DNA from: Pedobacter cryophilus | GTDB taxonomy: Bacteria > Bacteroidota > Bacteroidia > Sphingobacteriales > Sphingobacteriaceae | Direction of reading: 5' to 3' | DNA length: 64,000 nt | Assembly: GCF_005116455.1 (NCBI RefSeq) | Contig: NZ_SWBP01000001.1 | Location: forward strand, 186,001 to 250,000 | Shown: piece after piece, positions 9,677 through 48,878 of the stretch | How positions within the stretch are numbered: the stretch's first letter is position 1 | How the letters are laid out: every line of letters begins with the position of its first letter | Position numbers and translations under genes: made by a program | The notes under the pieces: generated by a model | Told to the model about the DNA's origin: nothing | Seen by the model: only the letters and a program-made list of their open reading frames with translations | The model's database searches: none

Positions 9677-12600
9677 TTAAGCTTCTTGTAATCCAGTGTT
9701 GGTAATTTTTGTCATATAACCTACACCTGGCTGTACATTTATTTCTTCCAATACATAGTAGGTTCTTTCATTTTTCAAAGCTTTTGAAACCTCTGAATTA
9801 GGATCATTAGCATCTCCAAATACAATAGCATTGGCCGGACAAGTTTGTTGACAAGCAACTTTAACGTCTCCATCTACTAAAGGTCTTTTCTCAATCTTAG
9901 CTTTTAATTTACCAGCTTGAATTCTTTGAATACACATAGAGCATTTTTCCATCACCCCACGAGAACGTGTAGTAACATCAGGATTTAATACTAATTGTGT
10001 GAATTCATTATTTAGGTAATTATCAAAACGAGAATCATTCCAGTAGTTAAACCAGTTGAAACGACGCACTTTGTATGGACAGTTATTTGCACAATATCTT
10101 GTACCTACACAACGGTTATAAGCCATGTGGTTTAAACCTTCTGTAGAGTGAACAGTTGCTAAAACCGGACAAACAGTTTCACAAGGTGCATGTTCGCAAT
10201 GTTGACACATCATTGGCTGATGAACAACAGATACGTTTTCCATTCTACCTTCTATATGATCAATTTCTTTCTCTTCAGTAATTTGCTTGCCTTCTTCGTT
10301 GAAAGTGTAGTAACGATCTATACGAATCCAGTGCATATCTCTTCTGCGACGAACTTCATCTTTACCTACAACCGGAACATTATTTTCGGTATTACAAGCA
10401 ACAATACAAGCGCCACAACCGGTACAAGCATTTAAATCAATTGCCATTACCCAATTATGCCCTGGTTGCTCGTACTTATTCCATAAATCGTAAGTCTCGT
10501 GTTTAGCACCATGATTTCCACTTCCATGTGCTGCATCTTCTTTGTACTGCGCAAAAGTGGCTTCACGAATAATGTTTCTTCCTTCAAAAGAATGGTGAGT
10601 TTGTGTTTGAGCCAATTCCTCAATTGCACCAGTTTTAGAGATAGTTACATTATTTGCAAATTGAAACGTACCATTACTCATCGCTAAAAATGGATAAGCA
10701 TTTTGACCTACGCCATCTGCAACTTTACCGGCTTTAGTTCTTCCGTAACCTAAAGCTACAGAAACAGTACCTTGTGCTTGACCAGGTTGAAAAAGAACTG
10801 GTAAATCAATCTGATACTCTCCACCTTTTAAGGTCACTACATCATATTGAGCAAGACCTAAACTCTCTGCATACTTAGGATTTAAGGCTGCGTAATTGTC
10901 CCAAGTTACTTTAGATACTGGATCTGGAGTTTCTTGTAATAATGGATTATTAGCTTGCTGACCAGATCCTATTGCTACAGATTGGTAAACATGTAATTCA
11001 ACATCTTTAGCAACAGATTTGCTTTGCGCCGAAACAAAAGAAGCGGCAGCAGCTACATTTCCTGCAAAAACAGTTGCTCCAACAGCTTTGGCTGGCAAAA
11101 CAACAAATCCGCTTTGTAAAATCTCATCCCATTTCTTACCTGCCGCTAAAAGAACTGATTTTTCCCAGTTGTTTCTTACGTAAGTGTAATAATCCGAAAC
11201 AGGATTATTAGACCATATCAATAAGCTTTGCTCTGCCTGACGGGTGTTGTAAATAGGATTAATAGTTGGCTGTACCAATGAATAGTAACCTTCTACTGCA
11301 TTTGCATCTCCCCAAGATTCTAAGAAATTATGGTTTGGAGCAATTAATTGACATAAACTAGCTGTTTCATCTTCTCTATCAGAGAATGAAATGGTTAGCG
11401 AAACTTTTTTCAAAGCTTCAGCAAATTCTTTGGTATTTGGAAGGCTGTAAACAGGATTAGCGTCTAAAAACATTACTGCTCCAACTTTACCCGCTTTCAT
11501 ATCAGCTAATAAAACGCTAAAATCTGCTTCTTTACCAGTAAATTGATAAGATGGATTGTCTAAATCTATTGTAGTACCGTAACTTCCTAATGCACTGTTA
11601 ATAGCATTAACAATAGTTTGGGTAGCTACATCATTTGAACCAGCTACTACTAATGCAGCTCCTTTTGCGTTCAACAGTTCTTTTGCTGCTAATTTAATGG
11701 CGCTATCAGCAACTTTATTTTCTCCTAAAGAAGAATTACCTAAGCTTGATCCTGTTACGGCTGCATATAATGCGAGCAACGCTGGACCTTCTTCTGATAA
11801 TTTAATAGCAATTCTAGAATCGGCATTGGTACCTGTCATACTCATTCCAGCTTCAAACTGAATATGTCTCGACATTCTTTTCTCGTTAAGAGAAGCCATA
11901 CCACGGTTACTTACATATTGCTTGGTAAACTGAACCGGAGAAATCCATGATCCTAAAAAGTCTGCACCAAAACTTACAATAACATTTGCTTTATCAAAAC
12001 GATATTGAGGCAATACTGCTTTACCAAAACTAGCTTCATTAGCTGTTATAATACCTGCATAAGAAACAGGATCAATAGTAATATGCTTTGTTGAAGGAAA
12101 CTGGGTAGTAAAATCTGCAATTACTGCTTTAGAAGAAGGACTATTAATAGTTGAACTTACAATAGCAATGGTTTTACCTGATGCCTGAATCTTGTTTAGT
12201 TCTCCTTTTACGTGTTGATCTATATCTTCCCAAGATTGTTCTGCTCCTTTAAACCAAGGGCCTTTCAATTTAGAAATATCATAAAGATCTAATACTGTAG
12301 CCTGAGCTTGAGCACTTAATCCACCTTTATTAATAATACAGTTTGGATTTCCCTCCACTTTAATAGGGCGACCTTCTCTGGTTTTCACCAAGATACTTCC
12401 GCCTTTATAACTTGAGGCATAATAATTTGGAATACCTGGAGTAATCTCTTCTGGCTTAATTAAATAAGGAATAGATTTTTGAACCGGCGCAACATTACAT
12501 GCTGCTAAACTCACCGCCCCTAAACCAAAGCCCATTGCCTTTAAGAAATCTCTACGAGGTGTAGCGGCTTTTAAGCCAGAACCTTCCAATAATTCTTCAA

Positions 12601-12700
12601 TAGGAAGAGATTCAGCAAATTCGTTTTTATTCTTTTCTACGAACTCAGGAGTTTTATTAATCTCCTCTAAACCTTTCCAATATTTTTTTGTGCTTTCCAT
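9677..12700 (-). CDS. actB: Alternative complex III subunit B, molybdopterin-oxidoreductase-like and 4Fe-4S protein
   Basis: A 1007-residue fusion. Near residues 48-70 is a Tat-like segment (RRDFLKAMGFGLGAVSLAAC). A molybdopterin oxidoreductase-like region follows (about 80-740), known in this family to bind no molybdenum. The C-terminal third is a ferredoxin-like part with four Cys clusters: CTGCGACIVAC (about residue 758), CQHCEHAPCETVC, CVGTRYCANNC and CSMC paired with CQQTC. These would hold iron-sulfur clusters. In the complex ActB sits on the periplasmic side and connects the ActC quinol site with the ActA hemes. Because the Tat motif is internal it may serve as an uncleaved or retained signal, as in homologues. 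Confidence 0.95.
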   Translation of the reverse strand: MESTKKYWKGLEEINKTPEFVEKNKNEFAESLPIEELLEGSGLKAATPRRDFLKAMGFGLGAVSLAACNVAPVQKSIPYLIKPEEITPGIPNYYASSYKGGSILVKTREGRPIKVEGNPNCIINKGGLSAQAQATVLDLYDISKLKGPWFKGAEQSWEDIDQHVKGELNKIQASGKTIAIVSSTINSPSSKAVIADFTTQFPSTKHITIDPVSYAGIITANEASFGKAVLPQYRFDKANVIVSFGADFLGSWISPVQFTKQYVSNRGMASLNEKRMSRHIQFEAGMSMTGTNADSRIAIKLSEEGPALLALYAAVTGSSLGNSSLGENKVADSAIKLAAKELLNAKGAALVVAGSNDVATQTIVNAINSALGSYGTTIDLDNPSYQFTGKEADFSVLLADMKAGKVGAVMFLDANPVYSLPNTKEFAEALKKVSLTISFSDREDETASLCQLIAPNHNFLESWGDANAVEGYYSLVQPTINPIYNTRQAEQSLLIWSNNPVSDYYTYVRNNWEKSVLLAAGKKWDEILQSGFVVLPAKAVGATVFAGNVAAAASFVSAQSKSVAKDVELHVYQSVAIGSGQQANNPLLQETPDPVSKVTWDNYAALNPKYAESLGLAQYDVVTLKGGEYQIDLPVLFQPGQAQGTVSVALGYGRTKAGKVADGVGQNAYPFLAMSNGTFQFANNVTISKTGAIEELAQTQTHHSFEGRNIIREATFAQYKEDAAHGSGNHGAKHETYDLWNKYEQPGHNWVMAIDLNACTGCGACIVACNTENNVPVVGKDEVRRRRDMHWIRIDRYYTFNEEGKQITEEKEIDHIEGRMENVSVVHQPMMCQHCEHAPCETVCPVLATVHSTEGLNHMAYNRCVGTRYCANNCPYKVRRFNWFNYWNDSRFDNYLNNEFTQLVLNPDVTTRSRGVMEKCSMCIQRIQAGKLKAKIEKRPLVDGDVKVACQQTCPANAIVFGDANDPNSEVSKALKNERTYYVLEEINVQPGVGYMTKITNTGLQEA

Positions 12701-12738
12701 TTAAGCTATATAAAACTGTAATTGTTTATGCTAATTAA

Positions 12739-14115
12739 TTAATAATGACACTTACCACACTCTAAACCACCCAACACTGCCGCTGTCACTTTTTCACCTT
12801 TTTTAATCTTATCATGAGCTGCAATTACTTTATCGTAATAAGCATTATCTTGATATTTAACTTCAGTTTCTTTATGACAGTTGATACACCATTTCATTGT
12901 TAATGGAGAGTATTGATAAACTTCTTCCATAGTTTGAATAGGTCCGTGACATTTCTGACAATCAATACCTGCAACTTTAACGTGTTGTGAGTGGTTAAAA
13001 TAAGCTAAGTCTGGAAGGTTATGAATTCTTACCCACTCAATAGGTCTTGGGTTTTCACCATACTTTTGAGTTTCTGGATTATAATCTAAAGCCGAGTAGA
13101 TTTTGTTGATTTCTGGAGAAATTTCGCCATCATACTTTTCTGTTGCTTGAACGTATTTATGACAGTTCATACAAACGTTAAGTGATGGAATAGATGCATT
13201 CTTAGATTTCCATGCACCAGAGTGACAGTATTGACACTGTATTTGATTGGTTCCGGCATGTAACTGGTGAGAAAACTTAATAGGTTGTACGGGCTGATAG
13301 CCAGTTTGAATACCTGTATTCCATAAACCCATCCATCCAAAAGAAGCTAAAGTAATAACACCTGCTAAAACTACAAAAAACACAAACTTCTTATTTTTTG
13401 CTAATTTCTTAACTACGGCAAATCTGTCTTTTGTTTCACCTTCTAATTCTTCCTCTTCTTCAAGCAATACTTTGCTATCTGTTTTTAATAACAGTCGCTC
13501 TAAAGTTCCAATTACTCGGTTTAAAACCAAAATAACCAAGAAAGCAATAATAACAACGGCAATTAAACCAATTAACATAAAGTCACTGATTCCGCCACTT
13601 TCAGTAGAAGCTGCTGCACCTGCATCAGTTGCTGCTGGAGCTGCTGCTTTCTTATCGCCCTCTACTTGGATGTAAGCTAAAATGTTTTTTACATCATCAT
13701 CAGAGAACTGAGGAAATACGGACATGGCTGCCTTGTTGTATTCTTCATAAATGGCTACCGCTCGTTTATCCCCCGCAGCAATCATTGCCGGAGAATTTTT
13801 AATCCATTTAATTAGATACGCTTCATCGTTATACTTTTGGTTAACGCCAGCTAATGCCGGACCCAATACTCTTTTATTGAGCGCATGGCATGAAACACAA
13901 TTGGCGGTCCATAAAGCTTCTCCAGCTGTCGCGTCTCCGGTTGGAGCTGCGGCACCGGCTGCTGCTGGTGTTGCTGTTTTTGAAGTATCTGCAGGAACTG
14001 CTTGACCAAATATTACCCCAACCGAACTTAAAGTAATGGCCGAAACCACCGTTAGGGATCTAATTAATCTTCTAAAATCAGATGAGAAGTTTCTCATATT
14101 GAGTTTGTTATACAC
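12739..14115 (-). CDS. actA: Alternative complex III subunit A, multiheme cytochrome c with an N-terminal monoheme domain
   Basis: A 458-residue protein with six CxxCH heme-binding motifs. The first, CVSCH, lies in an N-terminal class I-like cytochrome c domain (about residues 60-155) preceded by a signal peptide or anchor and an Ala/Pro-rich linker. Two helices follow (about 180-200 and 243-263). The C-terminal part then carries CQYCH, CMNCH, CQKCH, CINCH and CGKCH. The five C-terminal motifs match the pentaheme ActA of alternative complex III; the N-terminal domain is an added heme. It is the first gene of the act operon, behind the promoter near 14,181. The Met at 14,097 (residue 7) is an alternative start. 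Confidence 0.93.
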   Translation of the reverse strand: MYNKLNMRNFSSDFRRLIRSLTVVSAITLSSVGVIFGQAVPADTSKTATPAAAGAAAPTGDATAGEALWTANCVSCHALNKRVLGPALAGVNQKYNDEAYLIKWIKNSPAMIAAGDKRAVAIYEEYNKAAMSVFPQFSDDDVKNILAYIQVEGDKKAAAPAATDAGAAASTESGGISDFMLIGLIAVVIIAFLVILVLNRVIGTLERLLLKTDSKVLLEEEEELEGETKDRFAVVKKLAKNKKFVFFVVLAGVITLASFGWMGLWNTGIQTGYQPVQPIKFSHQLHAGTNQIQCQYCHSGAWKSKNASIPSLNVCMNCHKYVQATEKYDGEISPEINKIYSALDYNPETQKYGENPRPIEWVRIHNLPDLAYFNHSQHVKVAGIDCQKCHGPIQTMEEVYQYSPLTMKWCINCHKETEVKYQDNAYYDKVIAAHDKIKKGEKVTAAVLGGLECGKCHY

Positions 14116-14180
14116 TAAATTTGATTATTAAGATTTAAAAAAAGGCTCGATTAATTGTTTAACCTCACATTTTCGAACCA

Positions 14181-14213
14181 CAAAAGTATAATTAATTACG
14201 TTTTGCCTGACAA
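14181..14213 (-). promoter_or_regulatory. Likely promoter of the act-cta operon
   Basis: On the minus strand TACTTTTG (14188-14181) matches the Bacteroidota -7 element TAnnTTTG. A TTG (14213-14211) lies 22 nt upstream as a candidate -33 element. Transcription would begin near 14,174, giving a leader of about 60 nt to actA. The spacing is slightly long, so this is a prediction. The rest of 14,116-14,351 holds no gene; an AT-rich 9-bp hairpin (14273-14298) may end the transcript of the next gene. Confidence 0.45.
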
Positions 14214-14351
14214 TTTGATGACTTGTTTTACTAATTTAAAATCATTCTAAACAAGGTTAAAAAACTCACTTCCTATTAAAAAATAAAGCTTTTAATAGAA
14301 ATAGCACAAATCACACTTTTGTTTTGGATTTTATAATTTGATTTAAATTAT

Positions 14352-15332
14352 TTATTGTCTTAAAATCCAAGCGAAAATAAGTGGGCAAACTATGGTAGCA
14401 TCAGACTCTACAATAAATTTTGGAGTATGGATATCTAACTTTCCCCAAGTGATTTTCTCGTTAGGAACTGCTCCAGAATAAGAACCATAAGAAGTGGTCG
14501 AATCTGAAATTTGGCAGAAATAACTCCAGAAAGGAATATTTTCCATTTCCATATCCTGATAAAGCATTGGAACTACACAAATAGGAAAATCTCCGGCAAT
14601 ACCACCACCAATTTGGAAAAAGCCTAAACCTTTACCCTCAGAGTTTTTCGGATACCAATCTGCCAACCAGGTCATGTATTCGATCCCACTTTTCATGGTG
14701 CTGGCTTTTAATTGACCTTTAATCACATAAGACGCAAAAATATTACCCATGGTAGAATCTTCCCATCCTGGAACTACAATTGGCAAGTTTTTTTCGGCGG
14801 CAGCCAACATCCATGAATTTTTTGGATCAATTTCATAGTATTGTTCTAAAACCCCACTTAAAAGCATTTTATACATGTATTCATGAGGGAAATAACGTTC
14901 GCCAGCGGCTTCGGCATCCATCCAAATCTTTTGAATATGCTTTTGCAACCTTCTAAAAGCCTCTTCCTCAGGGATACAAGTATCGGTTACCCTGTTATAA
15001 TGATTCTCTAATAAATCCCATTCATCTTGTGGGCTTAAGTCTCTATAATTTGGCACTCTTTTGTAATGAGAGTGTGCTACCAAATTCATAATATCTTCTT
15101 CTAAATTGGCACCTGTACAAGAAATAATAGCCACTTTATCTTGTCTAATCATTTCTGCTAAAGAAATACCAAGCTCGGCGGTACTCATTGCTCCTGCTAA
15201 GGTGATCATCATTTTTCCACCTTCTGCTAAATGAGTTTCATAACCTTTAGCCGCATCCATTAATGCCGCAGCATTAAAATGCAAATAGTTTTTTTCTATA
15301 AATTGTGAAATTGGACCTCTTGATTCGCTCAT
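14352..15332 (-). CDS. Deoxyhypusine synthase family protein without the family's active-site lysine
   Basis: A 326-residue protein of the deoxyhypusine synthase fold, which binds NAD and, in eukaryotes and archaea, transfers a butylamine group from spermidine to eIF5A. Conserved parts are LAGAMSTAELGISLAEMIR, ISCTGANLEEDIMNL and VPGWEDSTMGNIFASY. The region that normally reads G-G-G-x-x-K-H-H is here GGGIAGDFPI, so the lysine that forms the enzyme-butylamine intermediate is Gly. Bacteria have no eIF5A, so the reaction is unknown; a polyamine-related role is only a guess. I chose the Met at 15,332 (protein starts MSESRGPISQFIEKN) because a TAnnTTTG-like element (15358-15351) overlaps the longer start at 15,353. 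Confidence 0.85.
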   Translation of the reverse strand: MSESRGPISQFIEKNYLHFNAAALMDAAKGYETHLAEGGKMMITLAGAMSTAELGISLAEMIRQDKVAIISCTGANLEEDIMNLVAHSHYKRVPNYRDLSPQDEWDLLENHYNRVTDTCIPEEEAFRRLQKHIQKIWMDAEAAGERYFPHEYMYKMLLSGVLEQYYEIDPKNSWMLAAAEKNLPIVVPGWEDSTMGNIFASYVIKGQLKASTMKSGIEYMTWLADWYPKNSEGKGLGFFQIGGGIAGDFPICVVPMLYQDMEMENIPFWSYFCQISDSTTSYGSYSGAVPNEKITWGKLDIHTPKFIVESDATIVCPLIFAWILRQ

Positions 15333-15496
15333 TTGAATTGTTTTTGCTTGCAAAAATAGAATTTTGGTTTACATTCTGGTGAATGTTATTTTAAGCCATT
15401 CAACATTAATACCCTATATAAAGTTAAAATTGCAGTGACTATGGAGCATTATTGGATAAAAATTATAGATAATTAACCCTTACGTTAAATTATTAA

Positions 15497-15526
15497 TTGT
15501 TTATGCATTGATAATTTATATTTTTG
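15497..15526 (+). promoter_or_regulatory. Promoter of the fatty-acid-synthase-like operon
   Basis: TTG at 15497-15499 and TATTTTTG at 15519-15526 are spaced by 19 nt. This is a good match to the Bacteroidota -33/-7 pattern (TTG, 19-20 nt, TAnnTTTG). The expected start of transcription is about 20 nt before the GTG start codon at 15,553. Confidence 0.6.
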
Positions 15527-15552
15527 ACACAGTAAAAAATACTTAAAAAATA

Positions 15553-16275
15553 GTGAGGAAACCTAAAGTTTTAATTACAGGAGCAAGCAGAGGTTTAGGA
15601 TTAGCAATTGCAAACGCTTTAAATGATGATTACTGCCTAATTTTACATGCTACAAAAACAGAAAATATCACTCACCTAAAAGAAGGCAATTACATTTTAG
15701 CCGCCGATTTTTCTAAACCTGAAGAAGTTACCGCTTTTTGTAAAGAACTTAAAGCACAACATGGTGATGATTTATATGCAGTAATTAACAACGCAGGTAT
15801 CAATGTAAGTAAACCTTTATCTTTTCAGCCCGAGCGGGAAATTGATAATGCGATACAAATTAATCTAAAAACCCCAATTCAAATATCTAAAACAGCATTC
15901 AAAATTTTTTCGGTTAAACAAAAAGGAGTAATTATTAATATGAGTTCTTTAGTTGCCGATACTGGGAATGCGTACCAAACTGTTTATTCGGCAACAAAAG
16001 CAGGTATTGCAGCATTCACAAAATCATTAGCTAAGGAAGCTGGCGCACTTTTCGAAAATAATCAAATTAGGGCAATCAGTGTTTCGCCAGGTTTTATAGA
16101 AACAGAAATGACGGCAGTAATCCCTCAAATAGAGCAAGATAAATTGGTTGCAAATATTCCATTGAAAAGAGCTGGCAAAGCCGATGAAATTGCACAAGTT
16201 TTAGCTTTTTTAATTTCAGACAAAGCATCATTTATCAACGGAAGTACTATCAATATAAACGGAGGAGTACTTTAA
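15553..16275 (+). CDS. Short-chain dehydrogenase, 3-oxoacyl-ACP reductase-like (FabG family)
   Basis: A 240-residue SDR protein. Near the N-terminus is the nucleotide-binding motif TGASRGLGLAIA, then NNAGIN, and the catalytic Ser with Y-x-x-x-K in NMSSLVADTGNAYQTVYSAT followed by K. The C-terminal FINGSTININGGVL is typical of FabG. In this operon it would reduce 3-oxoacyl chains on the carrier protein encoded two genes downstream, using NADPH. It begins with GTG directly downstream of the promoter at 15,497-15,526, and its stop codon overlaps the next start (TAATG). It is the first of eight plus-strand genes that form one transcription unit. Confidence 0.9.
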   Translation: MRKPKVLITGASRGLGLAIANALNDDYCLILHATKTENITHLKEGNYILAADFSKPEEVTAFCKELKAQHGDDLYAVINNAGINVSKPLSFQPEREIDNAIQINLKTPIQISKTAFKIFSVKQKGVIINMSSLVADTGNAYQTVYSATKAGIAAFTKSLAKEAGALFENNQIRAISVSPGFIETEMTAVIPQIEQDKLVANIPLKRAGKADEIAQVLAFLISDKASFINGSTININGGVL

Positions 16276-16814
16276 TGGAAGTAAATTTAGTAGGTACTGC
16301 CCCTAACAAAGTTTTAATTCACGGACCAAGTAAATTATTGGTAAATGAATACAATTGGCATGATCCTAATCATGGTATTGTTGCAAGTTATACGCCTACA
16401 GCTTTTGATGTAAAAGACCACTTTGGTGTTTTTAGAGGGGTAGATATGATAGAATCTTTTGCCCAGGCAACCTCAGGTTCTTGTGCAGAGTTTTTAACTC
16501 GATTGAAACGAGGTGATGATACTTCAAAAACTCATAGTGATTTTATACCTACTTTCATTAGTGTAGGTGGAGTTAATTTTCACTCTTACCTTTTAGAAGG
16601 CGACACATTTATCAGCATGGGTAAAATTATGTTTTTTAAATTTAGGCAAATTGTTATTGATGGAAGGGTTTATAAAGTGCCAGCAGGTTTAGATTTAAAT
16701 GCACACTTTAAAGACTTTACTACAGAGAAATTAAATAATTACGAAATAGATGATAGCTTTACTTTAGTTGCTGAGTTATTTGGCATTACTGGTAGAGCCA
16801 TTAAAAGAAAATAA
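16275..16814 (+). CDS. FabA/FabZ-like 3-hydroxyacyl-ACP dehydratase
   Basis: A 179-residue protein with a probable hot-dog fold. The segment VKDHFGVFRGVDMIESFAQA corresponds to the FabA/FabZ active-site helix region: His in D-H-F and Glu in M-I-E-S-F-A-Q are the candidate catalytic pair, although the usual H-F-P-G-x-P-x-x-P-G loop is altered to H-F-G-V-F-R-G. That change suggests an unusual substrate. It would dehydrate 3-hydroxyacyl-ACP made by the preceding reductase. It overlaps the upstream gene by one nucleotide and is followed after 14 nt by the carrier protein. The assignment is by motif and context. Confidence 0.75.
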   Translation: MEVNLVGTAPNKVLIHGPSKLLVNEYNWHDPNHGIVASYTPTAFDVKDHFGVFRGVDMIESFAQATSGSCAEFLTRLKRGDDTSKTHSDFIPTFISVGGVNFHSYLLEGDTFISMGKIMFFKFRQIVIDGRVYKVPAGLDLNAHFKDFTTEKLNNYEIDDSFTLVAELFGITGRAIKRK

Positions 16815-16828
16815 ATATAGAATACAAC

Positions 16829-17089
16829 ATGGAAAGAAAAGAAATTATTGATGGATTGGTAGAAATTCTACAAACGGTTAGAACAATCGATCAAGAAAAG
16901 TTAAAAGATATAAAAGAGGAGACTGATTTTATTGCTGATTTAAAAACTCCATCTACAGAGATGATTAATATTGCAGCTAAAGCCGAGCAAAAATTTGATT
17001 TAGAATTTGATGATGATGATATTGATGATTTAGGATCTAAGGTTAGAGATTTTGTAGATTTAATTATCAAAACAAAAGCTAACAGTTAA
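16829..17089 (+). CDS. Acyl carrier protein
   Basis: An 86-residue acidic protein of carrier-protein size. It has an N-terminal helix (about residues 3-25), a loop with the pantetheine attachment region at DLKTPSTEMINIA, and acidic helices (LEFDDDDIDDLG, VRDFVDLI). In ordinary carrier proteins the attachment Ser is in D-S-L; here the Ser is in P-S-T, so it is a divergent carrier. It would hold the growing chain for the ketosynthase encoded 2 nt downstream, after modification by the phosphopantetheinyl transferase of the same operon. Its distinct sequence suggests that it does not exchange freely with the housekeeping fatty-acid carrier; that is inference. Confidence 0.85.
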   Translation: MERKEIIDGLVEILQTVRTIDQEKLKDIKEETDFIADLKTPSTEMINIAAKAEQKFDLEFDDDDIDDLGSKVRDFVDLIIKTKANS

Positions 17090-17091
17090 AA

Positions 17092-18441
17092 ATGAATATG
17101 AAAGGCAGAAAGGTTGCAGTTGTGGGCATGGGAGGTGTTTTCCCAGATTGTAAAGATCTTTTAGATTTTGAACAAAAACTATTTAGCAACCAAAGCCTGA
17201 TTAGAAGCTGGGATAAACCTTTAAGCTACGGAAAGCAAGTACGTTCATCAGTTGCAGGTTATATTACCGAAGCAGAGGTGAATTTAGAGCCTGTAACGTC
17301 TAGTTTGGTAGAAGGTTATCCAGAATCTTATATTGATTTATTGAACAGAATTCCAGATAGAAACTTGGCTACCGCAGACATAGGGAGTATTTGGGCAATG
17401 TTAAGCTCAATAGACGCTATAAAAATGGCTGGATGGAATAACTCCGAAGTTGAGTCTGAACAAACAGGCGTAGTAGTTGGTTCTGGGAGTTGTGGTAACG
17501 AGATACAACGTATTGCATGGCACAACTTTTTTGAACTTGGCAAAAAAACACGTACAGTAGGTGCTCATACTGTAGATAGGGGAATGGTTTACCGTGAAGC
17601 AGCCAATGTATCCTGTCTAATTAAGAATAGAGGAGTATGTGAAGCGATGGGCTCTGCTTGTGCAACTGGTCTTGGTAATATTGGATATGCTTACCGTTTA
17701 ATAAGTTTCGGTTTGCAAGATCGTATTGTTGCCGGAGGCTCAGAAGGCACCGCATTAGAAACTTTTTTAGGTTTTGATGGTATGCAGGTTTTGAGTCGTG
17801 GGTTTGAACCGCACCAAAGTTCAAGACCATTCGATAAAGATAGAAATGGGTTCGTTTGCTCTTTTGGAACTGGTATAGTTTGTTTAGAAGCTTATGATAT
17901 AGCCAAAGCTAGAGGTGCAAATATTTTAGGAGTAATAGATTCGTACTTTAATAATTCAGATGGTGATGGTGATATGTTTGCTCCATCATTTTCTGGACAA
18001 AAAAGACTTTGGAAAGGTCTTTTGAATGATACTTCTCTTCGCACTGATGTAGTAAAGGTTCATGGAACTTCTACACCAACAGGCGATGCTGTTGAATTAC
18101 TAAGCGTAGTAGATACTTTAGGCGATAAAGGCTTTCAAATAGCAGCTCCAAAATCACAATTTGGGCACATGTTAGGCGCAGCTGGTGCGGTTGAATTTAT
18201 AACAGCGATACTCATGCTTAAAAGGCAAGAGGTTCTTCCTTGTTTAAATTCTGATAACTTAAATCCAGAGTTAGAAACTTTTCAAACTGTAGATAGTTGG
18301 AGTGGACCAAAAGAACCGTTGCTTTATTATAGAGATTTATTAAAGCAAGAAGTTTTTTCTAAAGAAATAAATAGTGTTGCCTGTTTAAATTATGGCTTTG
18401 GCGGAACCAATAGCGCCATGTTAGTATCAAAAGATAATTAA
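17092..18441 (+). CDS. Beta-ketoacyl-ACP synthase (FabB/FabF-like condensing enzyme)
   Basis: A 449-residue thiolase-fold condensing enzyme with an intact Cys-His-His triad: the nucleophile in AMGSACATGLGNIGYAY (about residue 190), the first His in VKVHGTSTPTGDAVEL (about 324), and the second in KSQFGHMLGAAGAVEF (about 362). The C-terminal NYGFGGTNSAML is also typical. It catalyses decarboxylative Claisen condensation of malonyl-ACP with an acyl chain. It is the only ketosynthase in the operon and has no chain-length-factor partner, so it would act as a homodimer, like FabB/FabF. The stop overlaps the next start (TAATG). Confidence 0.93.
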   Translation: MNMKGRKVAVVGMGGVFPDCKDLLDFEQKLFSNQSLIRSWDKPLSYGKQVRSSVAGYITEAEVNLEPVTSSLVEGYPESYIDLLNRIPDRNLATADIGSIWAMLSSIDAIKMAGWNNSEVESEQTGVVVGSGSCGNEIQRIAWHNFFELGKKTRTVGAHTVDRGMVYREAANVSCLIKNRGVCEAMGSACATGLGNIGYAYRLISFGLQDRIVAGGSEGTALETFLGFDGMQVLSRGFEPHQSSRPFDKDRNGFVCSFGTGIVCLEAYDIAKARGANILGVIDSYFNNSDGDGDMFAPSFSGQKRLWKGLLNDTSLRTDVVKVHGTSTPTGDAVELLSVVDTLGDKGFQIAAPKSQFGHMLGAAGAVEFITAILMLKRQEVLPCLNSDNLNPELETFQTVDSWSGPKEPLLYYRDLLKQEVFSKEINSVACLNYGFGGTNSAMLVSKDN

Positions 18442-38260: not shown

Positions 38261-38282
38261 AGGTTCGTGTCCTCACGAACCT
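38261..38282 (+). repeat. Dispersed hairpin repeat, left flank of the CRISPR locus
   Basis: A perfect 9-bp inverted repeat with a 4-nt loop: AGGTTCGTG-TCCT-CACGAACCT. Related copies stand at 35,682 and, on the other side of the CRISPR array, at 48,811 and 48,857. Confidence 0.7.
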
Positions 38283-38351
38283 ATATTTATCTTTATCCTG
38301 CTTAGTATAAGAACCGAAAACTTGACATCTTAATTTTTCAATAAAAACCTT

Positions 38352-38428
38352 ATAAATAAAGAAAGCGAGGTTTTATCCCCGCTTTAAATGTTTTCACAAC
38401 GGAATAATCCTTATTGTGATTTGCTTTC
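38352..38428 (-). ncRNA. tracrRNA of the type II-C system
   Basis: On the minus strand, 38428-38415 reads GAAAGCAAATCACA, the perfect complement of the GTTGTGATTTGC end of the CRISPR repeat (the anti-repeat). It continues AATAAGGATTATTCCGTTGT, which resembles the nexus region of Bacteroidota tracrRNAs (AAGGA...UCC followed by GUUGUG). A hairpin follows, AAAGCGGGG / CCTCGCTTT (38385-38377 and 38370-38362), then CTTTATTTAT as an intrinsic terminator. A TAAATTTG promoter element lies directly upstream. Estimated length is about 77 nt. It pairs with the precursor crRNA for cleavage by RNase III and for loading into Cas9. The gene is divergent from cas9. Confidence 0.88.
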
Positions 38429-38432
38429 AATT

Positions 38433-38440
38433 CAAATTTA
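38433..38440 (-). promoter_or_regulatory. -7 promoter element of the tracrRNA
   Basis: On the minus strand TAAATTTG matches TAnnTTTG exactly and would start the RNA near 38,428, at the first base of the anti-repeat. The -33 region on the minus strand is A/T-rich without a clear TTG. Confidence 0.55.
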
Positions 38441-38474: not shown

Positions 38475-38589
38475 TTTTAAAATATTTTTTCTTTTTAGTT
38501 TTATTTTCAGGACCTTACAAGAAATAAATACCTCCATTTCACCAAACTATTTAAAACACATTTAAAAATACCTCAAAAACATTATGCTT

Positions 38590-41500
38590 ATGAAAACAAT
38601 TTTAGGGCTTGATTTAGGGACCAACAGTATTGGTTGGGCTTTAATCGAGCAAGATTTCGATAACAAAAAAGGAAATATTATAGGAATGGGTAGCCGTATT
38701 ATACCTATGACACAAGATATCAAAGATGAATTTGGAAAAGGGAACTCTATTTCACAAACTGCAGACAGAACAAATTTTAGAGGTATTCGACGTATTCGGG
38801 AGCGCTACCTTTTAAGGAGAGAAAGATTACATCGTGTAATAAATGTTCTGGGATTTTTACCAAAGCATTATGCCAATCAAATTGATTTCGAAAAGCGCTT
38901 AGGAAAGTTTATTGATGAAACAGAACCAAAACTGGCTTATGATGAGAAGAACTTCATCTTCAAGAAATCTTTTGAAGAAATGCTAACCGACTTTAAACAA
39001 CATCAACCTCAAATATTAGTCAATGAAAAAGGAGAAGATAAATTAATTCCTTACGACTGGACAATTTACTACCTAAGAAAGAAGGCTTTAACTGAGAAAA
39101 TAGAGAAGAACGAGTTGGCTTGGTTAATTCTAAATTTTAATCAAAAGCGAGGATATTATCAACTACGTGGAGAGGAAGAAGAGGAAAATCCGAACAAGTT
39201 AATTGAGTTTCATTCACTCAAAATTAGTGATGTAATTGCTGATGATACACTAAAAGGTAAATCAGAAATTTGGTATTCTTTAATTTTAGAAAATGGATGG
39301 ATATACAGACGTTCTAGTAAAACCCCTTTGTTCGATTGGAAAGATAAAGTGCGTGACTTTATAGTCACAACTGACCTGAATGATGACGGATCTGTTAAAA
39401 CCGATAAAGAAGGTAGTGAAAAGAGAAGTTTTAGAGCTCCAAGTGAAGACGATTGGACTTTACTAAAAAAGAAAACAGAACAAGAAATTATCCACTCTAA
39501 AAAGACTGTCGGCACTTACATTTACGAAGCGCTACTACAAAATCCTAAACAAAAAATTAAAGGAAAATTAGTTAGAACTATTGAGCGCAAATTTTATAAA
39601 GAAGAATTAAAGGCCATACTAAAAGCACAACAAGTATTTCATCCAGAATTGAATGATATGGATTTATATATTGAATGTGTGAGAGAATTATATCGTAATA
39701 ATGAAGCTCATCAAACCTCATTAGGCAAAAAAGATATTGTTCATTTGTTAACAGATGATATTATTTTTTATCAGCGGCCACTACGAAGTCAAAAGTCATC
39801 TATCAGCAGCTGCACTTTAGAGTTTAGGAAGTATAAAGACGAAAATGGAGTAGAACAAACTAATAATCTCAAAGCAATTCCAAAATCACACCCACTTTAT
39901 CAGGAGTTTCGCTTATGGCAGTGGATTTACAACTTAGGCATTTATACAAAAGAAAATGATATAAATGTAAGTACTAAACTTTTAGAAAACATTGAGGATT
40001 ACGAGAATCTTTTCAATTTTTTATTTAGTAAAAAGGAAATCAAACAAGATATTTTACTTAAGTTTTTATTGGAACAAAAAGGATATAAAAGCAAACTATT
40101 ATCCGCAGAAGTGGCAAAGTACCGTTGGAATTTTGTTCCTGATAAGATTTACCCATGTAATGAAACAGGATCACAAATACGCTATAGATTATCTAAAATA
40201 GAGAATATTTCTGATGATTTTTTGACCTCTGAAATGGAACAAAAGCTATGGCATATCATCTATTCGGTAACTGATAAAATTGATTATGAAAAAGCCTTAA
40301 ATACTTTTGCCCAAAAACACAATTTAGATGTTAATTCCTTTGTAGATAACTTCAAAAAGTTTCCCCCATTCAAAAGTGAATATGGTTCTTTTTCTGAAAA
40401 GGCTATTAAAAAACTTTTACCATTAATTCGAATAGGTAAACATTGGGACTGGAATACTATAGACCATAAAAGTCAGGAAAGAATTAGTAAAATAATTACT
40501 GGAGAATTTGATGAAAGTATAAAAGATAGAGTAAGAGAGAAATCAATTAATTTAACAACTGAAGATCATTTTCAAGGCTTACAACTTTGGTTGGCACAGT
40601 ATATTGTTTATGGACGTCACTCGGAAGCTGTGAATTTAGGTAAATGGAATACTGTCAGCGACTTAGAAACCTATCTTAAAGAATTTAAGCAGCATTCCTT
40701 AAGAAATCCGATTGTAGAGCAAGTAATTACCGAAACACTTCGAGTAGTGAAAGATATTTGGAAGAAATACGGAGCTGGTGCAAAAGATTTCTTTAAAGAA
40801 ATACACGTAGAGCTTGGCCGTGAAATGAAAAATACCGCTGATGGCAGAAAGCAACTTACTAATCAGATAACAGAAAATGAAAACACTAATTTAAGGATAA
40901 AGGCTTTACTTACAGAACTACTAAATGATAGCAATGTTGAAAATGTGCGCCCATTCTCTCCAATGCAGCAAGAAATTTTGAAGATTTATGAAGATGGTGT
41001 ACTCAACTCAAATATAGAAATTGATGATGAATATTTAAAGATTAGTAAAACTGCTCAACCATCAAGTTCAGAATTAAAACGTTATAAACTATGGTTAGAA
41101 CAAAAATACCGTTCACCTTACACTGGAGAAATTATCCCATTAAATAAATTGTTTACACCAGAGTATGAAATTGAACATATCATTCCTCAATCAAGATATT
41201 TTGATGATAGTTTCAGTAATAAGGTCATTTGTGAGTCGGCTGTCAATAAACTAAAAGATAAGCAGCTAGGCCTTGAGTTTATTAAAAATCATCACGGTGA
41301 GATTGTGCCTACTGGCTTTGGTAGGCAAGTAACTGTCTTTGGTGAAGATGAATATGAAACATTTGTAAAAGAAAACTATAGTAAAAACAGAGGGAAGAAA
41401 AATAAGCTAATGTTGGAAGAAATTCCAGATAAAATGATTGAACGACAGCTAAATGATACACGTTACATTAGTAAATTCATCTCTGCCCTTTTATCAAATC

Positions 41501-42947
41501 TCGTACGTGAAGAAAGCAACGATGATGGCGTAAATTCGAAGAATGTATTACCAGGAAATGGAAAAATCACTACAGAACTTAAAAGAGATTGGGGCTTAAA
41601 TGATGTATGGAATGATTTGATCTTGCCACGTTTCGAAAGAATGAATAAATTAACAGACTCTACAGCTTTTACAGCATGGAATGCAAATCATCAAAAATTT
41701 CTCCCTACAATACCCTTAGAATTTTCAAAGGGTTTTCAAAAGAAAAGAATCGATCATAGACATCATGCTATGGATGCTTTAGTAATTGCCTGTGCGTCTA
41801 GAGATCATATTAATTTATTAAATAACCAATCGGCAAAATCACAAACAAAACGATACGATTTACAACACAAACTTAGGCGGAAAGAACCTTATTTCAACCA
41901 GAAAGAACAAAAGCAAAAAGAAGCCTTTAAAGAGTTTTTTAAACCTTGGGACAGTTTCACGGTTGATGCTCGAAATAGCTTAGAAAATATAATAGTAAGT
42001 TTTAAACAAAATCTTCGTGTTATTAATAAAACAACAAATAGCTATGAGAGTTACAAAGACGAAAACAACAATTTAAGAATTGGTAAAGATGGAAAGTTTA
42101 AGAAAGATTTAGTACCACAAACTAATGGGGACAGTTGGGCAATTCGTAAGTCTATGCATAAAGATACAGTTTCGGGACTTGTTAAATTGGATAGAGTTAA
42201 AATACCTAATGGTAAGATTTTAACCGCGACAAGAAAAAGAATTGACACCTCCTTCAATTTTAAAACCATTGAATCTATTACAGATACTGGAATTCAAAAA
42301 ATCTTAAAGAATTATCTTATCAGCAAAGGAAATGATCCAGAATTAGCTTTTTCTCCGGAAGGTATTGAAGATATGAATAAAAATATCAGAAAATATAACG
42401 ACAATAAAAATCATCAACCTATTTATAAAGCCAGAGTTTTTGAATTAGGCAGCAAATTTCCATTAGGTCAAACTGGCAATAAAAAATACAAATTTGTAGA
42501 AGCAGCCAAGGGTACAAATCTCTTTTTTGCAATTTACCAAGATGAAAAAGGTAAAAGAAGTTATGAGACTATTCCTCTAAATATTGTTATTGAAAGGCAA
42601 AAACAAGGCTTAAACTCTGTTCCTTTAGAAAATAATAAAAGTGAAAAACTATTATTTCATCTTTCGCCAAATGATTTGGTTTATGTGCCAAACCATGAGT
42701 TATTATTTGAAGATAATGAAGTTAGCATAAATAATTCCCTAAAGGGCGAAAGAGAGAATATATACAAAATGGTAAGTTCCTCTGGTGTTCAATGCTTTTT
42801 TGTTAAGCAAGAATTAGCTACAACTATTGTAAATAAAGTTGAATATTCAGCATTAAATAAGATGGAAAGAAGTCTTCATGGAGTTATGATAAAGGACAGT
42901 TGTGTGAAGTTGAATATTGACAGACTAGGAAGTATTTCTATAGTTAT

Positions 42948-42951
<4 letters not shown>
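38590..42951 (+). CDS. cas9: Cas9, RNA-guided endonuclease (type II-C)
   Basis: A 1453-residue Cas9 (counting from the Met at 38,590; the Met at 38,584 is also possible). RuvC-I is ILGLDLGTNSIGWALIE with Asp8. The Arg-rich bridge helix follows at FRGIRRIRERYLLRRERLHR. RuvC-II has Glu741 in IHVELGREM. The HNH domain begins near EYEIEHIIPQSRYFDDSFSN, with the catalytic His863 preceded by Glu where many Cas9 proteins have Asp. RuvC-III is RIDHRHHAMDALVIACA (His1058/1059, Asp1062). All nuclease residues are present, so the protein looks active. The size is at the large end for II-C and usual for Bacteroidota. Its stop overlaps cas1 (ATGA), and the tracrRNA is divergent from it. No csn2 or cas4 is present. 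Confidence 0.97.
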
Positions 42952-44311
<1,360 letters not shown>

Positions 44312-44347
44312 AATATTAGCACTATAGCCTGAAAATTTCATTAGAAT

Positions 44348-44381
44348 AAAAATCGAAGAGCATAAAACCCTTCGATTTTTT
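44348..44381. terminator. Bidirectional terminator between cas2 and the CRISPR array
   Basis: An 11-bp stem AAAAATCGAAG (44348-44358) / CTTCGATTTTT (44370-44380). The plus strand continues with a T, and the minus strand with ATTCTAA after the T-run in the stem. It can end the cas operon on the plus strand and array transcripts on the minus strand. The next 54 nt (44382-44435) are AT-rich and probably form the leader. Confidence 0.75.
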
Positions 44382-46131
44382 AAATTCTAATTTTAAATAC
44401 AACAAACTGATTAACAGCAAAATAAGACCACCTATGTTGTTGTAAATATCAGTTCTTCAAAGAATGAAAGCAAATCACAACGAGTTTCTCCGATTTGTAA
44501 AAGGCATTTTCGTTGTTGTAAATATCAGTTCTTCAAAGAATGAAAGCAAATCACAACGATAAGCTTTCGGTTAATAATGTGGCGCAGTTGTTGTAAATAT
44601 CAGTTCTTCAAAGAATGAAAGCAAATCACAACGGATTTTATATTCTATGTAAGCAAATTGTTGTTGTTGTAAATATCAGTTCTTCAAAGAATGAAAGCAA
44701 ATCACAACCAGTATCAGTGAATCTTTTTGCCATTTGTGTTGTTGTAAATATCAGTTCTTCAAAGAATGAAAGCAAATCACAACTCTAGTCAATAATTAAT
44801 AGTCAATTAACAAGTTGTTGTAAATATCAGTTCTTCAAAGAATGAAAGCAAATCACAACGCCCTCGCATTTGGAGCGGTAAACCTTATAGTTGTTGTAAA
44901 TATCAGTTCTTCAAAGAATGAAAGCAAATCACAACGTGAATGATGTTTTGGTTGTAACACTAAATGTTGTTGTAAATATCAGTTCTTCAAAGAATGAAAG
45001 CAAATCACAACATCAAAAAGGCTATCATTTAGGCAATATTGTTGTTGTAAATATCAGTTCTTCAAAGAATGAAAGCAAATCACAACGACAAAAACTCTTT
45101 CCATTAAACCTAATTTGTTGTTGTAAATATCAGTTCTTCAAAGAATGAAAGCAAATCACAACATGTTTTCATGTTTTGGATTTCTTAATTCTGTTGTTGT
45201 AAATATCAGTTCTTCAAAGAATGAAAGCAAATCACAACAACAGATGGAATCAAAACTTTAAGCGGAAAGTTGTTGTAAATATCAGTTCTTCAAAGAATGA
45301 AAGCAAATCACAACTATTGGAAGTTCTGTTCCTTATATCTTAGAGTTGTTGTAAATATCAGTTCTTCAAAGAATGAAAGCAAATCACAACAACTATACAG
45401 TAGTAAGTAGAAGACCCGTGTTGTTGTAAATATCAGTTCTTCAAAGAATGAAAGCAAATCACAACAAATTATCACAAATAATGTAAAAGGCATATGTTGT
45501 TGTAAATATCAGTTCTTCAAAGAATGAAAGCAAATCACAACAAAGTAATGTATTGAGTATTACTGTTGCGTGTTGTTGTAAATATCAGTTCTTCAAAGAA
45601 TGAAAGCAAATCACAACAGCAAACGAGCCGAATGAGGCAATAATTAAGTTGTTGTAAATATCAGTTCTTCAAAGAATGAAAGCAAATCACAACATCGATA
45701 TATGCTAAAGTTACAGCTGATGGTTGTTGTAAATATCAGTTCTTCAAAGAATGAAAGCAAATCACAACAGCTTTAAGCTCTAATATTGTTTTTACTGAGT
45801 TGTTGTAAATATCAGTTCTTCAAAGAATGAAAGCAAATCACAACACACATGGTTTGCAAAATGCTCGGTTGAACGTTGTTGTAAATATCAGTTCTTCAAA
45901 GAATGAAAGCAAATCACAACATAGCTCAAACAACTGATTTAAAGCGTGTTGTTGTTGTAAATATCAGTTCTTCAAAGAATGAAAGCAAATCACAACCCTC
46001 TTGCGGATATTGCGGATTGCTATCGGGTTGTTGTAAATATCAGTTCTTCAAAGAATGAAAGCAAATCACAACATAGCGGAAATTGGGGGGTAGGGGTTAC
46101 TAGTTGTTGTAAATATCAGTTCTTCAAAGAA

Positions 46132-46175
46132 TGAAAGCAAATCACAACACCAGGTGGTGATGTGATTTGCTTTCA
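46132..46175. other. Hairpin formed by repeat 23 and an atypical spacer containing anti-repeat sequence
   Basis: Spacer 23 (46149-46182) is 34 nt long and contains TGTGATTTGCTTTCAAT (46161-46177), identical over 17 nt to the tracrRNA locus (38415-38431). With the end of repeat 23 it makes a stem of 15 bp (46132-46146 with 46161-46175), one A/A mismatch, 5 more bp (46148-46152 with 46155-46159) and a GG loop. Confidence 0.9.
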
Positions 46176-48720
46176 ATCCAACGTTGTTGTAAATATCAGT
46201 TCTTCAAAGAATGAAAGCAAATCACAACAAACAACTCAGCTTCAAGATACCTTTATTAGTTGTTGTAAATATCAGTTCTTCAAAGAATGAAAGCAAATCA
46301 CAACCTTAGCGCAAAGAGGCATCGCATTAGTGGCGTTGTTGTAAATATCAGTTCTTCAAAGAATGAAAGCAAATCACAACGGGTTATACCATTTTTCAAC
46401 CGGAACAATAGTTGTTGTAAATATCAGTTCTTCAAAGAATGAAAGCAAATCACAACGATAAATGGCACTATTCGAGACAGGTAATCGTTGTTGTAAATAT
46501 CAGTTCTTCAAAGAATGAAAGCAAATCACAACCATGTTCTGTAAATCCAATTGTACTTCCTTGTTGTTGTAAATATCAGTTCTTCAAAGAATGAAAGCAA
46601 ATCACAACCCGGTGTTAACAAGGTGTCCAATTTACCGAGTTGTTGTAAATATCAGTTCTTCAAAGAATGAAAGCAAATCACAACATCTTGAGTCCCAGTA
46701 ATAATAAACTTTCTGTTGTTGTAAATATCAGTTCTTCAAAGAATGAAAGCAAATCACAACAAGGGCAACCAGACAGTAGGCATTTTAAATGTTGTTGTAA
46801 ATATCAGTTCTTCAAAGAATGAAAGCAAATCACAACTATAAACATGGTTTTTTAAGTTATGGTAGAGTTGTTGTAAATATCAGTTCTTCAAAGAATGAAA
46901 GCAAATCACAACATTAAATGATTCAGGAAAAAATAATAGTGAGTTGTTGTAAATATCAGTTCTTCAAAGAATGAAAGCAAATCACAACAATAGCATCTAA
47001 TTTATGTCTTTCAGAAGGTTGTTGTAAATATCAGTTCTTCAAAGAATGAAAGCAAATCACAACACCCGCCCCAGGTGTTACCTGTCAAACATAGTTGTTG
47101 TAAATATCAGTTCTTCAAAGAATGAAAGCAAATCACAACATTTAAAAGACAATGATTTATAATTACAAGGTTGTTGTAAATATCAGTTCTTCAAAGAATG
47201 AAAGCAAATCACAACATGGGAGACAAAGAAGTTTCTTTTTTTATCGTTGTTGTAAATATCAGTTCTTCAAAGAATGAAAGCAAATCACAACACTGGCCAA
47301 TGGCTTTGTTTTAGTTCCTGCGTTGTTGTAAATATCAGTTCTTCAAAGAATGAAAGCAAATCACAACATAAATTAGGCATTATTTTAGCACTCATTGTTG
47401 TTGTAAATATCAGTTCTTCAAAGAATGAAAGCAAATCACAACTACAAGCTTACTTGCATGGCTTTGGTTGTAGTTGTTGTAAATATCAGTTCTTCAAAGA
47501 ATGAAAGCAAATCACAACAATGAAGATTCTTACTTAATTTGTCAGGATGTTGTTGTAAATATCAGTTCTTCAAAGAATGAAAGCAAATCACAACACTATT
47601 GAAGATATTGAAATGACTTGGTCTGTTGTTGTAAATATCAGTTCTTCAAAGAATGAAAGCAAATCACAACGAACGGACGCTAACTTTCTGCTTATTTGAG
47701 TTGTTGTAAATATCAGTTCTTCAAAGAATGAAAGCAAATCACAACAAAGCAATGTATTAACTATTACTGTTGCGTGTTGTTGTAAATATCAGTTCTTCAA
47801 AGAATGAAAGCAAATCACAACATGTCATGTATTACGGTGGCGAAGCTCTTTGTTGTTGTAAATATCAGTTCTTCAAAGAATGAAAGCAAATCACAACTAA
47901 TGTATAAATAGTCTTTCTTCCAAAGTGGTTGTTGTAAATATCAGTTCTTCAAAGAATGAAAGCAAATCACAACATATATCTTAGCTTATCTATTCTTTGA
48001 TAAGTTGTTGTAAATATCAGTTCTTCAAAGAATGAAAGCAAATCACAACTTAAATCATCTTCAATAATGTGCAAGCCTAGTTGTTGTAAATATCAGTTCT
48101 TCAAAGAATGAAAGCAAATCACAACTGGGTATGAGCAGGAATAATATTAAACGCTGTTGTTGTAAATATCAGTTCTTCAAAGAATGAAAGCAAATCACAA
48201 CTTGATTCTAGAACTCTTTCTTTTATTTTTGTTGTTGTAAATATCAGTTCTTCAAAGAATGAAAGCAAATCACAACACATTGCCAGCGTTATTATTTTTA
48301 AAGTATGTTGTTGTAAATATCAGTTCTTCAAAGAATGAAAGCAAATCACAACGATGATTTACAAGGTTCTCAACTTTGCCGTGTTGTTGTAAATATCAGT
48401 TCTTCAAAGAATGAAAGCAAATCACAACGGTGTGTATCACACAAACTTCTAAAATACCGTTGTTGTAAATATCAGTTCTTCAAAGAATGAAAGCAAATCA
48501 CAACAAATGAATTATGCACTAAAATTGAATGCTCGTTGTTGTAAATATCAGTTCTTCAAAGAATGAAAGCAAATCACAACGGCGCCACATATTGATAACC
48601 CATATCTGCTGTTGTTGTAAATATCAGTTCTTCAAAGAATGAAAGCAAATCACAACCAGAATCAACCGCATACTTATATCAAGAAAGTTGTTGTAAATCT
48701 CAGATTCTCAAAGAATGAAA

Positions 48721-48776
48721 CGGAGCTTGCGGAGTTCTTGAATACCTTAAAAAAACAATGAAAACTAATGAAAAAA
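48721..48776. other. 56-nt insertion inside the terminal CRISPR repeat
   Basis: The last repeat runs 34 nt to 48,720, is interrupted by 56 nt, then resumes with GCAAATCACAAC (48777-48788). AATGAAA occurs just before the insertion (48714-48720) and near its end (48767-48773), like a short direct duplication. Part of the insert (GAATACCTT then A-rich, 48740-48756) resembles 38234-38249 to the left of cas9. Confidence 0.75.
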
Positions 48777-48810
48777 GCAAATCACAACTAGGCATAATTA
48801 TACTGAAGCC

Positions 48811-48878
48811 ATGGTTCGTGTCCCCACAAACTGATCTTAAATTTCAATAAAAATGCTGTTTCGTGAGGACACGAAACA
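48811..48878 (+). repeat. Pair of dispersed hairpin repeats, right flank of the CRISPR locus
   Basis: Copy one (48811-48832) reads ATGGTTCGTGTCCCCACAAA and onward. Copy two (48857-48878) is in opposite orientation and forms a perfect 9-bp hairpin, TGTTTCGTG-AGGA-CACGAAACA. They belong to the family seen at 35,682 and 38,261. The following 180 bp up to the next gene hold no feature that I can support. Confidence 0.65.

What the first reader, a model, noticed from the sequence alone, without database searches (positions are those of the whole stretch)
46132..46182. A CRISPR spacer that contains the tracrRNA anti-repeat and folds back on its own repeat
Spacer 23 is 34 nt where all others are 29-30 nt. 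It holds TGTGATTTGCTTTCAAT, 17 nt identical to the tracrRNA locus at 38415-38431. The CRISPR repeat itself matches only the first 15 of these, so the likely source is a tracrRNA-like sequence rather than a copied repeat. With the adjoining repeat it forms a 15+5 bp hairpin with a GG loop. Read as crRNA, an anti-repeat lies directly before the repeat, much like a natural single-guide fold. Possible explanations are capture from another CRISPR locus or a phage-carried CRISPR-RNA mimic, a decoy that binds the repeat and alters crRNA processing, or a regulatory guide. The 12 nt nearest the PAM side do not match the host tracrRNA, so self-cutting of that locus is unlikely.
Basis: partly seen in the sequence, partly recalled or inferred. 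Interest (0 to 1): 0.85.

Follow-up and report, generated by a model that had tools for sequence, protein, structure and literature searches.

The report
Self-silencing hairpin inside CRISPR array
One odd 'spacer' in a bacterial CRISPR-Cas9 array is a backward copy of the end of its neighbouring repeat, so its guide RNA should fold up on itself and stay silent; the same kind of hairpin sits on the oldest repeat of arrays in related bacteria, a blocking device not reported before for this CRISPR subtype in the papers I could search.

Summary
In a II-C array of 56 perfect repeats, spacer 23 (46149-46182) is the only 34-nt spacer among 815 spacers of 29 surveyed arrays. It is also the only one with more than 9 nt of inverted repeat: 15 nt, expected about 1e-4 per array. 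With the adjoining repeat it forms a 21-nt-arm hairpin with one mismatch. No protospacer was found in the collections searched. The tracrRNA-source reading is weak: every tracrRNA read continues AATAAGGATTATTCCG, and the spacer does not. The 'natural single guide' reading is wrong, because the order is antirepeat then repeat, with no nexus.

In silico, crRNA 23 hides its own tracrRNA-binding site: tracrRNA binding gains 0 to -2 kcal/mol, against about -17 for the other 54. A scan of 400 family genomes for repeat-antirepeat hairpins gave only this one and five others. All five are perfect inverted copies capping the leader-distal 'extra' repeat of arrays; a sixth, truncated, was found separately. 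Such hairpins are known to block extraneous crRNA in II-A and type VI systems, but were reported not found in II-C. Most likely spacer 23 is the same kind of inverted duplication, formed inside the array, that silences one crRNA. Origin and silencing are inferred.

The parts
46149..46182 (-). Spacer 23, 34 nt (crRNA strand: GTTGGATTGAAAGCAAATCACATCACCACCTGGT); the only spacer not 29-30 nt
   Evidence: only 34-nt spacer of 815
46161..46175 (-). Antirepeat: 15-nt exact inverted copy of the tracrRNA-pairing end of the adjoining repeat
46132..46175 (-). Antirepeat-repeat hairpin, 21-nt arms (20 paired, one A/A mismatch in DNA), GG loop (or a 4-bp CACC/GGTG core with a 4-nt loop)
46103..46148 (-). 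Repeat 23, whose tracrRNA-binding half is masked by the hairpin
44436..48656 (-). II-C CRISPR array, 56 perfect repeats, 55 spacers; crRNAs on the minus strand, leader on the cas2 side (44326-44435 conserved in relatives)
48686..48788 (-). Leader-distal extra repeat, degenerate and split by an insertion within the tracrRNA-pairing end
38340..38436 (-). tracrRNA: antirepeat, conserved AATAAGGATTATTCCGTTGTGAAAACATTTA core, terminator-like hairpin; divergent from cas9
38584..42951 (+). cas9 (1455 aa)
   Evidence: TIGR01865, 404 bits
42948..43979 (+). cas1
   Evidence: TIGR03639
43982..44311 (+). cas2
   Evidence: TIGR01573

Best explanation
Spacer 23 carries an inverted, near-exact copy of the tracrRNA-pairing end of the repeat it adjoins, most likely made inside the array by a fold-back (quasi-palindrome) copying event. 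A nascent strand ending ...CACAAC|ACCAGGTGGTGA would pair CACC with GGTG, extend for 15 nt along its own repeat copy, and return to the template. This would turn a 30-nt spacer into a 34-nt one. In RNA the antirepeat lies just 5' of its repeat and folds onto it. The repeat cannot then pair with tracrRNA, so the crRNA of this one unit is not matured or loaded into Cas9, while its neighbours are unaffected. The same kind of hairpin caps the extra (oldest, leader-distal) repeat of arrays in relatives, where it would stop an extraneous crRNA. Shown: sequence, uniqueness, predicted fold and energies, caps in relatives. Inferred: the fold-back origin, the silencing, and the capping function.
For: Exact 15-nt inverted copy of the adjoining repeat, with a further in-register 5-bp core (P about 0.003 for a run of 5 given the antirepeat). 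The length anomaly and the antirepeat fall in the same spacer, each unique among 815; a copying event explains both. tracrRNA-binding gain is -0.0 to -2.2 kcal/mol for crRNA 23 against means near -17 to -18 (sd about 3) for the other 54. Repeat-antirepeat hairpins in 400 family genomes: six only, namely this one and five perfect inverted caps at array ends, with 0 hits to the control pattern in that sample (contexts). A sixth cap, with a truncated extra repeat, is in G403. One cap has the same loop in three species (G365, G332, G368), two of them with different spacers. Caps cancel tracrRNA binding just as spacer 23 does: -0.0 to -1.4 against -20.9 for a bare repeat. Most uncapped arrays have extra repeats that are cut or mutated in the tracrRNA-pairing end. 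Experiments in papers show hairpins at the extra repeat or its guide block crRNA formation or use in related systems (PMC13187072, PMC12080349).
Against: The copy is not perfect: one mismatch inside the arms, and the 7 nt after the antirepeat do not follow the repeat (a return to the template has to be assumed). The extra tracrRNA likeness (17-nt identity, 20 of 21 with one mismatch) is then chance, P about 0.03. The hairpin is mid-array and not at the extra repeat, so the capping role cannot be its role here. No RNA data. The five main caps were found by searching for such hairpins, so their true frequency is not known, and in four of those loci no cas gene lay in the stretch fetched.
Confidence: 0.5

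Rival explanations
1. Spacer 23 was acquired by Cas1-Cas2 from foreign DNA holding a CRISPR repeat, array cap or antirepeat of another Bacteroidota II-C system; the silencing follows as a by-product.
For: Other Bacteroidota repeats end GATTGAAAGCAAATCACAAC, 19 of 20 like the spacer, and that core is almost CRISPR-only in the bacterial genomes found. The tracrRNA and other species' repeats match the spacer beyond the 15 nt shared with the host repeat.
Against: No repeat, tracrRNA or cap found has CACATC in place of CACAAC. No 20-nt match in genome contigs, none within 3 mismatches in 400 family genomes, none in phage or plasmid records or viral contigs. The length of 34 stays unexplained.
Confidence: 0.15
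2. Ordinary spacer from a phage or plasmid gene that by chance resembles the inverted repeat end.
For: Both strands have open frames, and viral contigs hold about a dozen chance 17-mer matches. A scan of very many arrays would meet such a case now and then.
Against: Expected 1.2e-4 in this array and 0.0018 in all 815 spacers surveyed, and the length anomaly and in-register core are then separate coincidences. No protospacer found.
Confidence: 0.13
3. Relic of a former array end: two arrays were joined and the antirepeat cap of the leader-side array now lies between repeats 23 and 24.
For: Caps of the same build are array ends in six relatives, and one relative (L032) has two repeat variants in one continuous run.
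Against: Repeats on both sides are identical and spacer lengths alike. The join would have to fall within a few nt of the antirepeat.
Confidence: 0.12
4. Regulatory decoy or natural single-guide-like RNA: the antirepeat acts in trans on other repeats or guides Cas9 to a host gene.
For: The antirepeat could pair with any crRNA repeat; tracr-L in Streptococcus pyogenes shows single-guide control exists (own knowledge of Workman et al. 2021, cited in PMC13187072).
Against: Wrong order for a single guide, no nexus, and the cis hairpin outcompetes trans pairing. No other match in the genome within 3 mismatches. No relative keeps the element.
Confidence: 0.05
5. Sequencing or assembly artefact (fold-back chimaera).
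For: Inverted duplications can be library artefacts; draft genome of 16 contigs.
Against: The sequence returns in frame to the next repeat and all 56 repeats are perfect. Similar caps occur in several independent genomes, three of them sharing one cap.
Confidence: 0.05

Closest known systems
Leader-repeat hairpin blocking extraneous crRNA in type II-A (Liao et al. 2022, as described in PMC12080349 and PMC13187072)
   Same: An RNA segment just upstream pairs with the tracrRNA-binding repeat and stops crRNA formation from it
   Different: II-A: leader and first repeat at the acquisition end. Here II-C: the caps are at the oldest repeat, and spacer 23 is inside the array
Leader-repeat hairpins of type VI (PMC13187072)
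   Same: Upstream RNA hides a repeat and prevents an unwanted crRNA (tested there with Cas13b)
   Different: No tracrRNA; Cas13 repeat processing; at the first repeat only
II-C extra-repeat inhibition (PMC12080349): terminators, guide hairpins, repeat mutations
   Same: Same subtype and same problem; most uncapped arrays seen here have damaged extra repeats
tracrRNA antirepeat
   Same: 17 nt identical; same pairing with the repeat
   Different: No nexus or terminator; cis, not trans
Racr / solitary repeat units in phages (PMC10651486, abstract only)
   Same: CRISPR-repeat-like RNA outside normal use
   Different: Those mimic repeats in viral genomes; this is an antirepeat in a host array

Membership tests
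Repeat-masking (ecrRNA-blocking) hairpin | Segment 5' of a repeat in the transcript, complementary to its tracrRNA-pairing part | tested here: met
Repeat-masking (ecrRNA-blocking) hairpin | Fold outcompetes tracrRNA pairing | tested here: met
   in silico only: gain 0 to -2 against about -17 kcal/mol
Repeat-masking (ecrRNA-blocking) hairpin | Located at the repeat that would give the extraneous crRNA | tested here: not met
   mid-array for spacer 23; met for the caps of relatives
Repeat-masking (ecrRNA-blocking) hairpin | Blocks crRNA production in cells | not testable with these tools
   needs RNA sequencing
Cas1-Cas2-acquired II-C spacer | Length of 28-31 nt in this array family | tested here: not met
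   34 nt; 811 of 815 are 28-31
Cas1-Cas2-acquired II-C spacer | Protospacer with PAM | tested here: inconclusive
   none found, but the array as a whole gave only two marginal phage hits, both at spacer 39
Cas1-Cas2-acquired II-C spacer | Flanked by two intact repeats | tested here: met
tracrRNA or natural single guide | Antirepeat followed by AATAAGGATTATTCCG nexus and terminator | tested here: not met
tracrRNA or natural single guide | Repeat 5' of antirepeat in one RNA | tested here: not met
   order is antirepeat then repeat on the minus strand

The most novel reading that the evidence does not exclude
In one family of Bacteroidota II-C CRISPR systems, inverted copies of the repeat end are generated next to repeats and act as off-switches: as caps on the oldest repeat they block extraneous crRNA, and within the array, as at spacer 23, they silence a single unit. 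This would be a repeat-masking mechanism not reported for II-C, and the first seen mid-array.
Probability: 0.3. Interest if true: 0.7.

Novelty: new variant of a known kind. Interest (0 to 1): 0.55.

Why it matters
II-C arrays were said to lack repeat-pairing hairpins at the extra repeat (PMC12080349), and that paper leaves about a quarter of II-C systems without an explained block. The caps found here, led to by spacer 23, are a direct and testable candidate. Spacer 23 itself is a natural test of what happens when a guide carries its own antirepeat: an array unit that should be transcribed but silent, with 54 sister units as controls. It also suggests that fold-back copying at repeats makes such elements, so the origin of antirepeats becomes a question that can be studied in living arrays.

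Tried and rejected
Protospacer searches: own genome with up to 3 mismatches, phage and plasmid BLAST, six 17-22-nt patterns and two back-translated reading frames in viral contigs, a 20-mer in genome contigs, 400 family genomes; none found. Viral 17-mer hits looked like CRISPR mimics at first but are single copies without arrays or tracrRNA context. A mis-cut integration copying 4 nt of leader or neighbour spacer was considered for the extra 4 nt and dropped: the bases do not match (my reading). The guessed pre-duplication spacer ACCAGGTGGTGA-N8..14-ATCCAAC was sought in 18 genus genomes: none. Rfam found nothing in the window. One further hit of the hairpin pattern, in G1087 (L082), has no CRISPR array around it and was set aside.

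Full report
1. Setting. The window holds a complete type II-C CRISPR-Cas locus: tracrRNA on the minus strand near 38340-38436, cas9 38584-42951, cas1, cas2, and an array at 44436-48656 of 56 identical 46-nt repeats with 55 spacers. The tracrRNA's antirepeat and the repeat fix the strand: both RNAs are read from the minus strand, so each crRNA is spacer then repeat. The flank on the cas2 side is conserved among relatives, whereas the far end carries a damaged repeat. So the leader and the newest spacers are on the cas2 side and the oldest, 'extra' repeat is far from it. This agrees with the published II-C layout (PMC12080349).

2. Spacer 23 is 34 nt, all others 29-30. It contains 17 nt identical to the tracrRNA locus, of which 15 are the inverted end of the repeat. 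With the repeat on its left it makes a hairpin of 21-nt arms with one mismatch. I surveyed 29 II-C arrays, mostly around Cas9 relatives, with 815 spacers: no other spacer is 34 nt (the three of 43-44 nt lie by altered repeats), and no other has more than 9 nt of inverted repeat. The expected number for this array is about 1e-4. In the 4-Mb genome the 15-mer is confined to the repeats, the tracrRNA and this spacer.

3. Source. I found no protospacer in the host genome, 400 family genomes, phage and plasmid records, 2.9 million viral contigs or 84,980 species genomes, within the limits of exact patterns and BLAST. Absence is weak evidence, since the array as a whole gave only two marginal phage hits. 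The tracrRNA source is disfavoured: every tracrRNA read in relatives runs CACAATAAGGATTATTCCG, the spacer runs CACATCACCACCTGGT. Bacteroidota repeats with GATTGAAAGCAAATCACAAC match it 19 of 20, but none carries its CACATC. Two small likenesses compete: 5 of 7 further nt like the tracrRNA (P about 0.03) and five consecutive further pairs in register with the neighbouring repeat (P about 0.003). The second, together with the odd length, favours a copy made in place from the adjoining repeat.

4. What it does. Folded in the crRNA direction, the unit has -31.6 kcal/mol in 58 nt. For all 55 units I computed how much energy tracrRNA pairing adds to guide plus 24 nt of repeat: 54 units gain about 17-18 kcal/mol, unit 23 gains 0 to 2. 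The prediction is that tracrRNA cannot open this hairpin, and that crRNA 23 is not made or not loaded. This rests on RNA folding alone, without Cas9 or RNase III; RNase III might cut the hairpin itself. The order antirepeat-repeat, without nexus, excludes a single-guide reading, and the spacer as a whole matches no other place in the genome within 3 mismatches.

5. Relatives. I searched for a repeat end followed within 32 nt by its inverted copy. In 400 family genomes there were six cases, with no match to the reversed control pattern: this spacer, and five loci where the leader-distal extra repeat is followed by a perfect inverted copy of its end with a short loop. Three species share the same cap (loop arm GCGC-GAA-GCGC), and at least two of them have different spacers behind it. 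A sixth relative, G403, has a perfect 22-nt-arm palindrome at a truncated extra repeat, and one more distant array (L045) a partial 11-nt antirepeat after a longer loop. In these caps tracrRNA binding is cancelled just as for unit 23. Most other arrays have extra repeats cut or mutated in the tracrRNA-pairing end, including this window's own, though several look intact and uncapped.

6. Known context. Type II-A leaders and type VI leaders form hairpins with the repeat that would give an extraneous crRNA, and block it (PMC13187072; Liao et al. 2022 as described there). For II-C, a study of over 650 systems reports terminators, guide hairpins and repeat mutations, and says that no hairpin with the extra repeat was found (PMC12080349). 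The caps are thus a new variant in II-C as far as the held literature goes; spacer 23 is the same structure in an unusual place.

7. Judgement. Best reading: an inverted duplication of the repeat end, most likely by fold-back copying inside the array, which silences one crRNA. It works like a repeat-masking hairpin but does not meet that family's positional criterion. Origin is inferred; the silencing is predicted, not shown. Rivals are capture from foreign CRISPR DNA, chance, a former array end, a regulatory decoy and an artefact, in that order.

Noticed in passing
L036 (G002), between tracrRNA and cas9; reverse-strand coordinates 5736 and 5988: Two extra antirepeat copies (27 nt and 14 nt, exact) besides the tracrRNA, close to the cas9 start; possible second tracr-like or regulatory RNAs.
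   Followed up: no
L037 (G236), distal array end, reverse-strand coordinate about 18828: A second, degenerate tracrRNA copy directly abuts the leader-distal end of the array.
   Followed up: no
L076, L077, L078, L079 (G365, G332, G368, G116): Short arrays with perfect antirepeat caps and no cas1, cas2 or cas9 match in the stretch fetched; three species share the same cap, two of them also its upstream flank.
   Followed up: partly
window 45542-45571 (spacer 15) and 47746-47775 (spacer 44): Spacers 15 and 44 are 27 of 30 identical: two variants of one target, probably the same phage region sampled twice.
   Followed up: no
window 47368-47396 (spacer 39): 91% match over 35 nt to the VP1 region of a Microviridae record, E 9e-3; marginal.
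   Followed up: partly
window 38264-38279 and 48860-48875: A 16-nt palindrome-like motif TTCGTGTCCTCACGAA lies on both sides of the CRISPR-Cas locus in inverted orientation; may mark a mobile or recombining unit.
   Followed up: no
L032 (G205) 10523-17782: Two repeat variants in one almost continuous run of 96 repeats, suggesting joined arrays.
   Followed up: no
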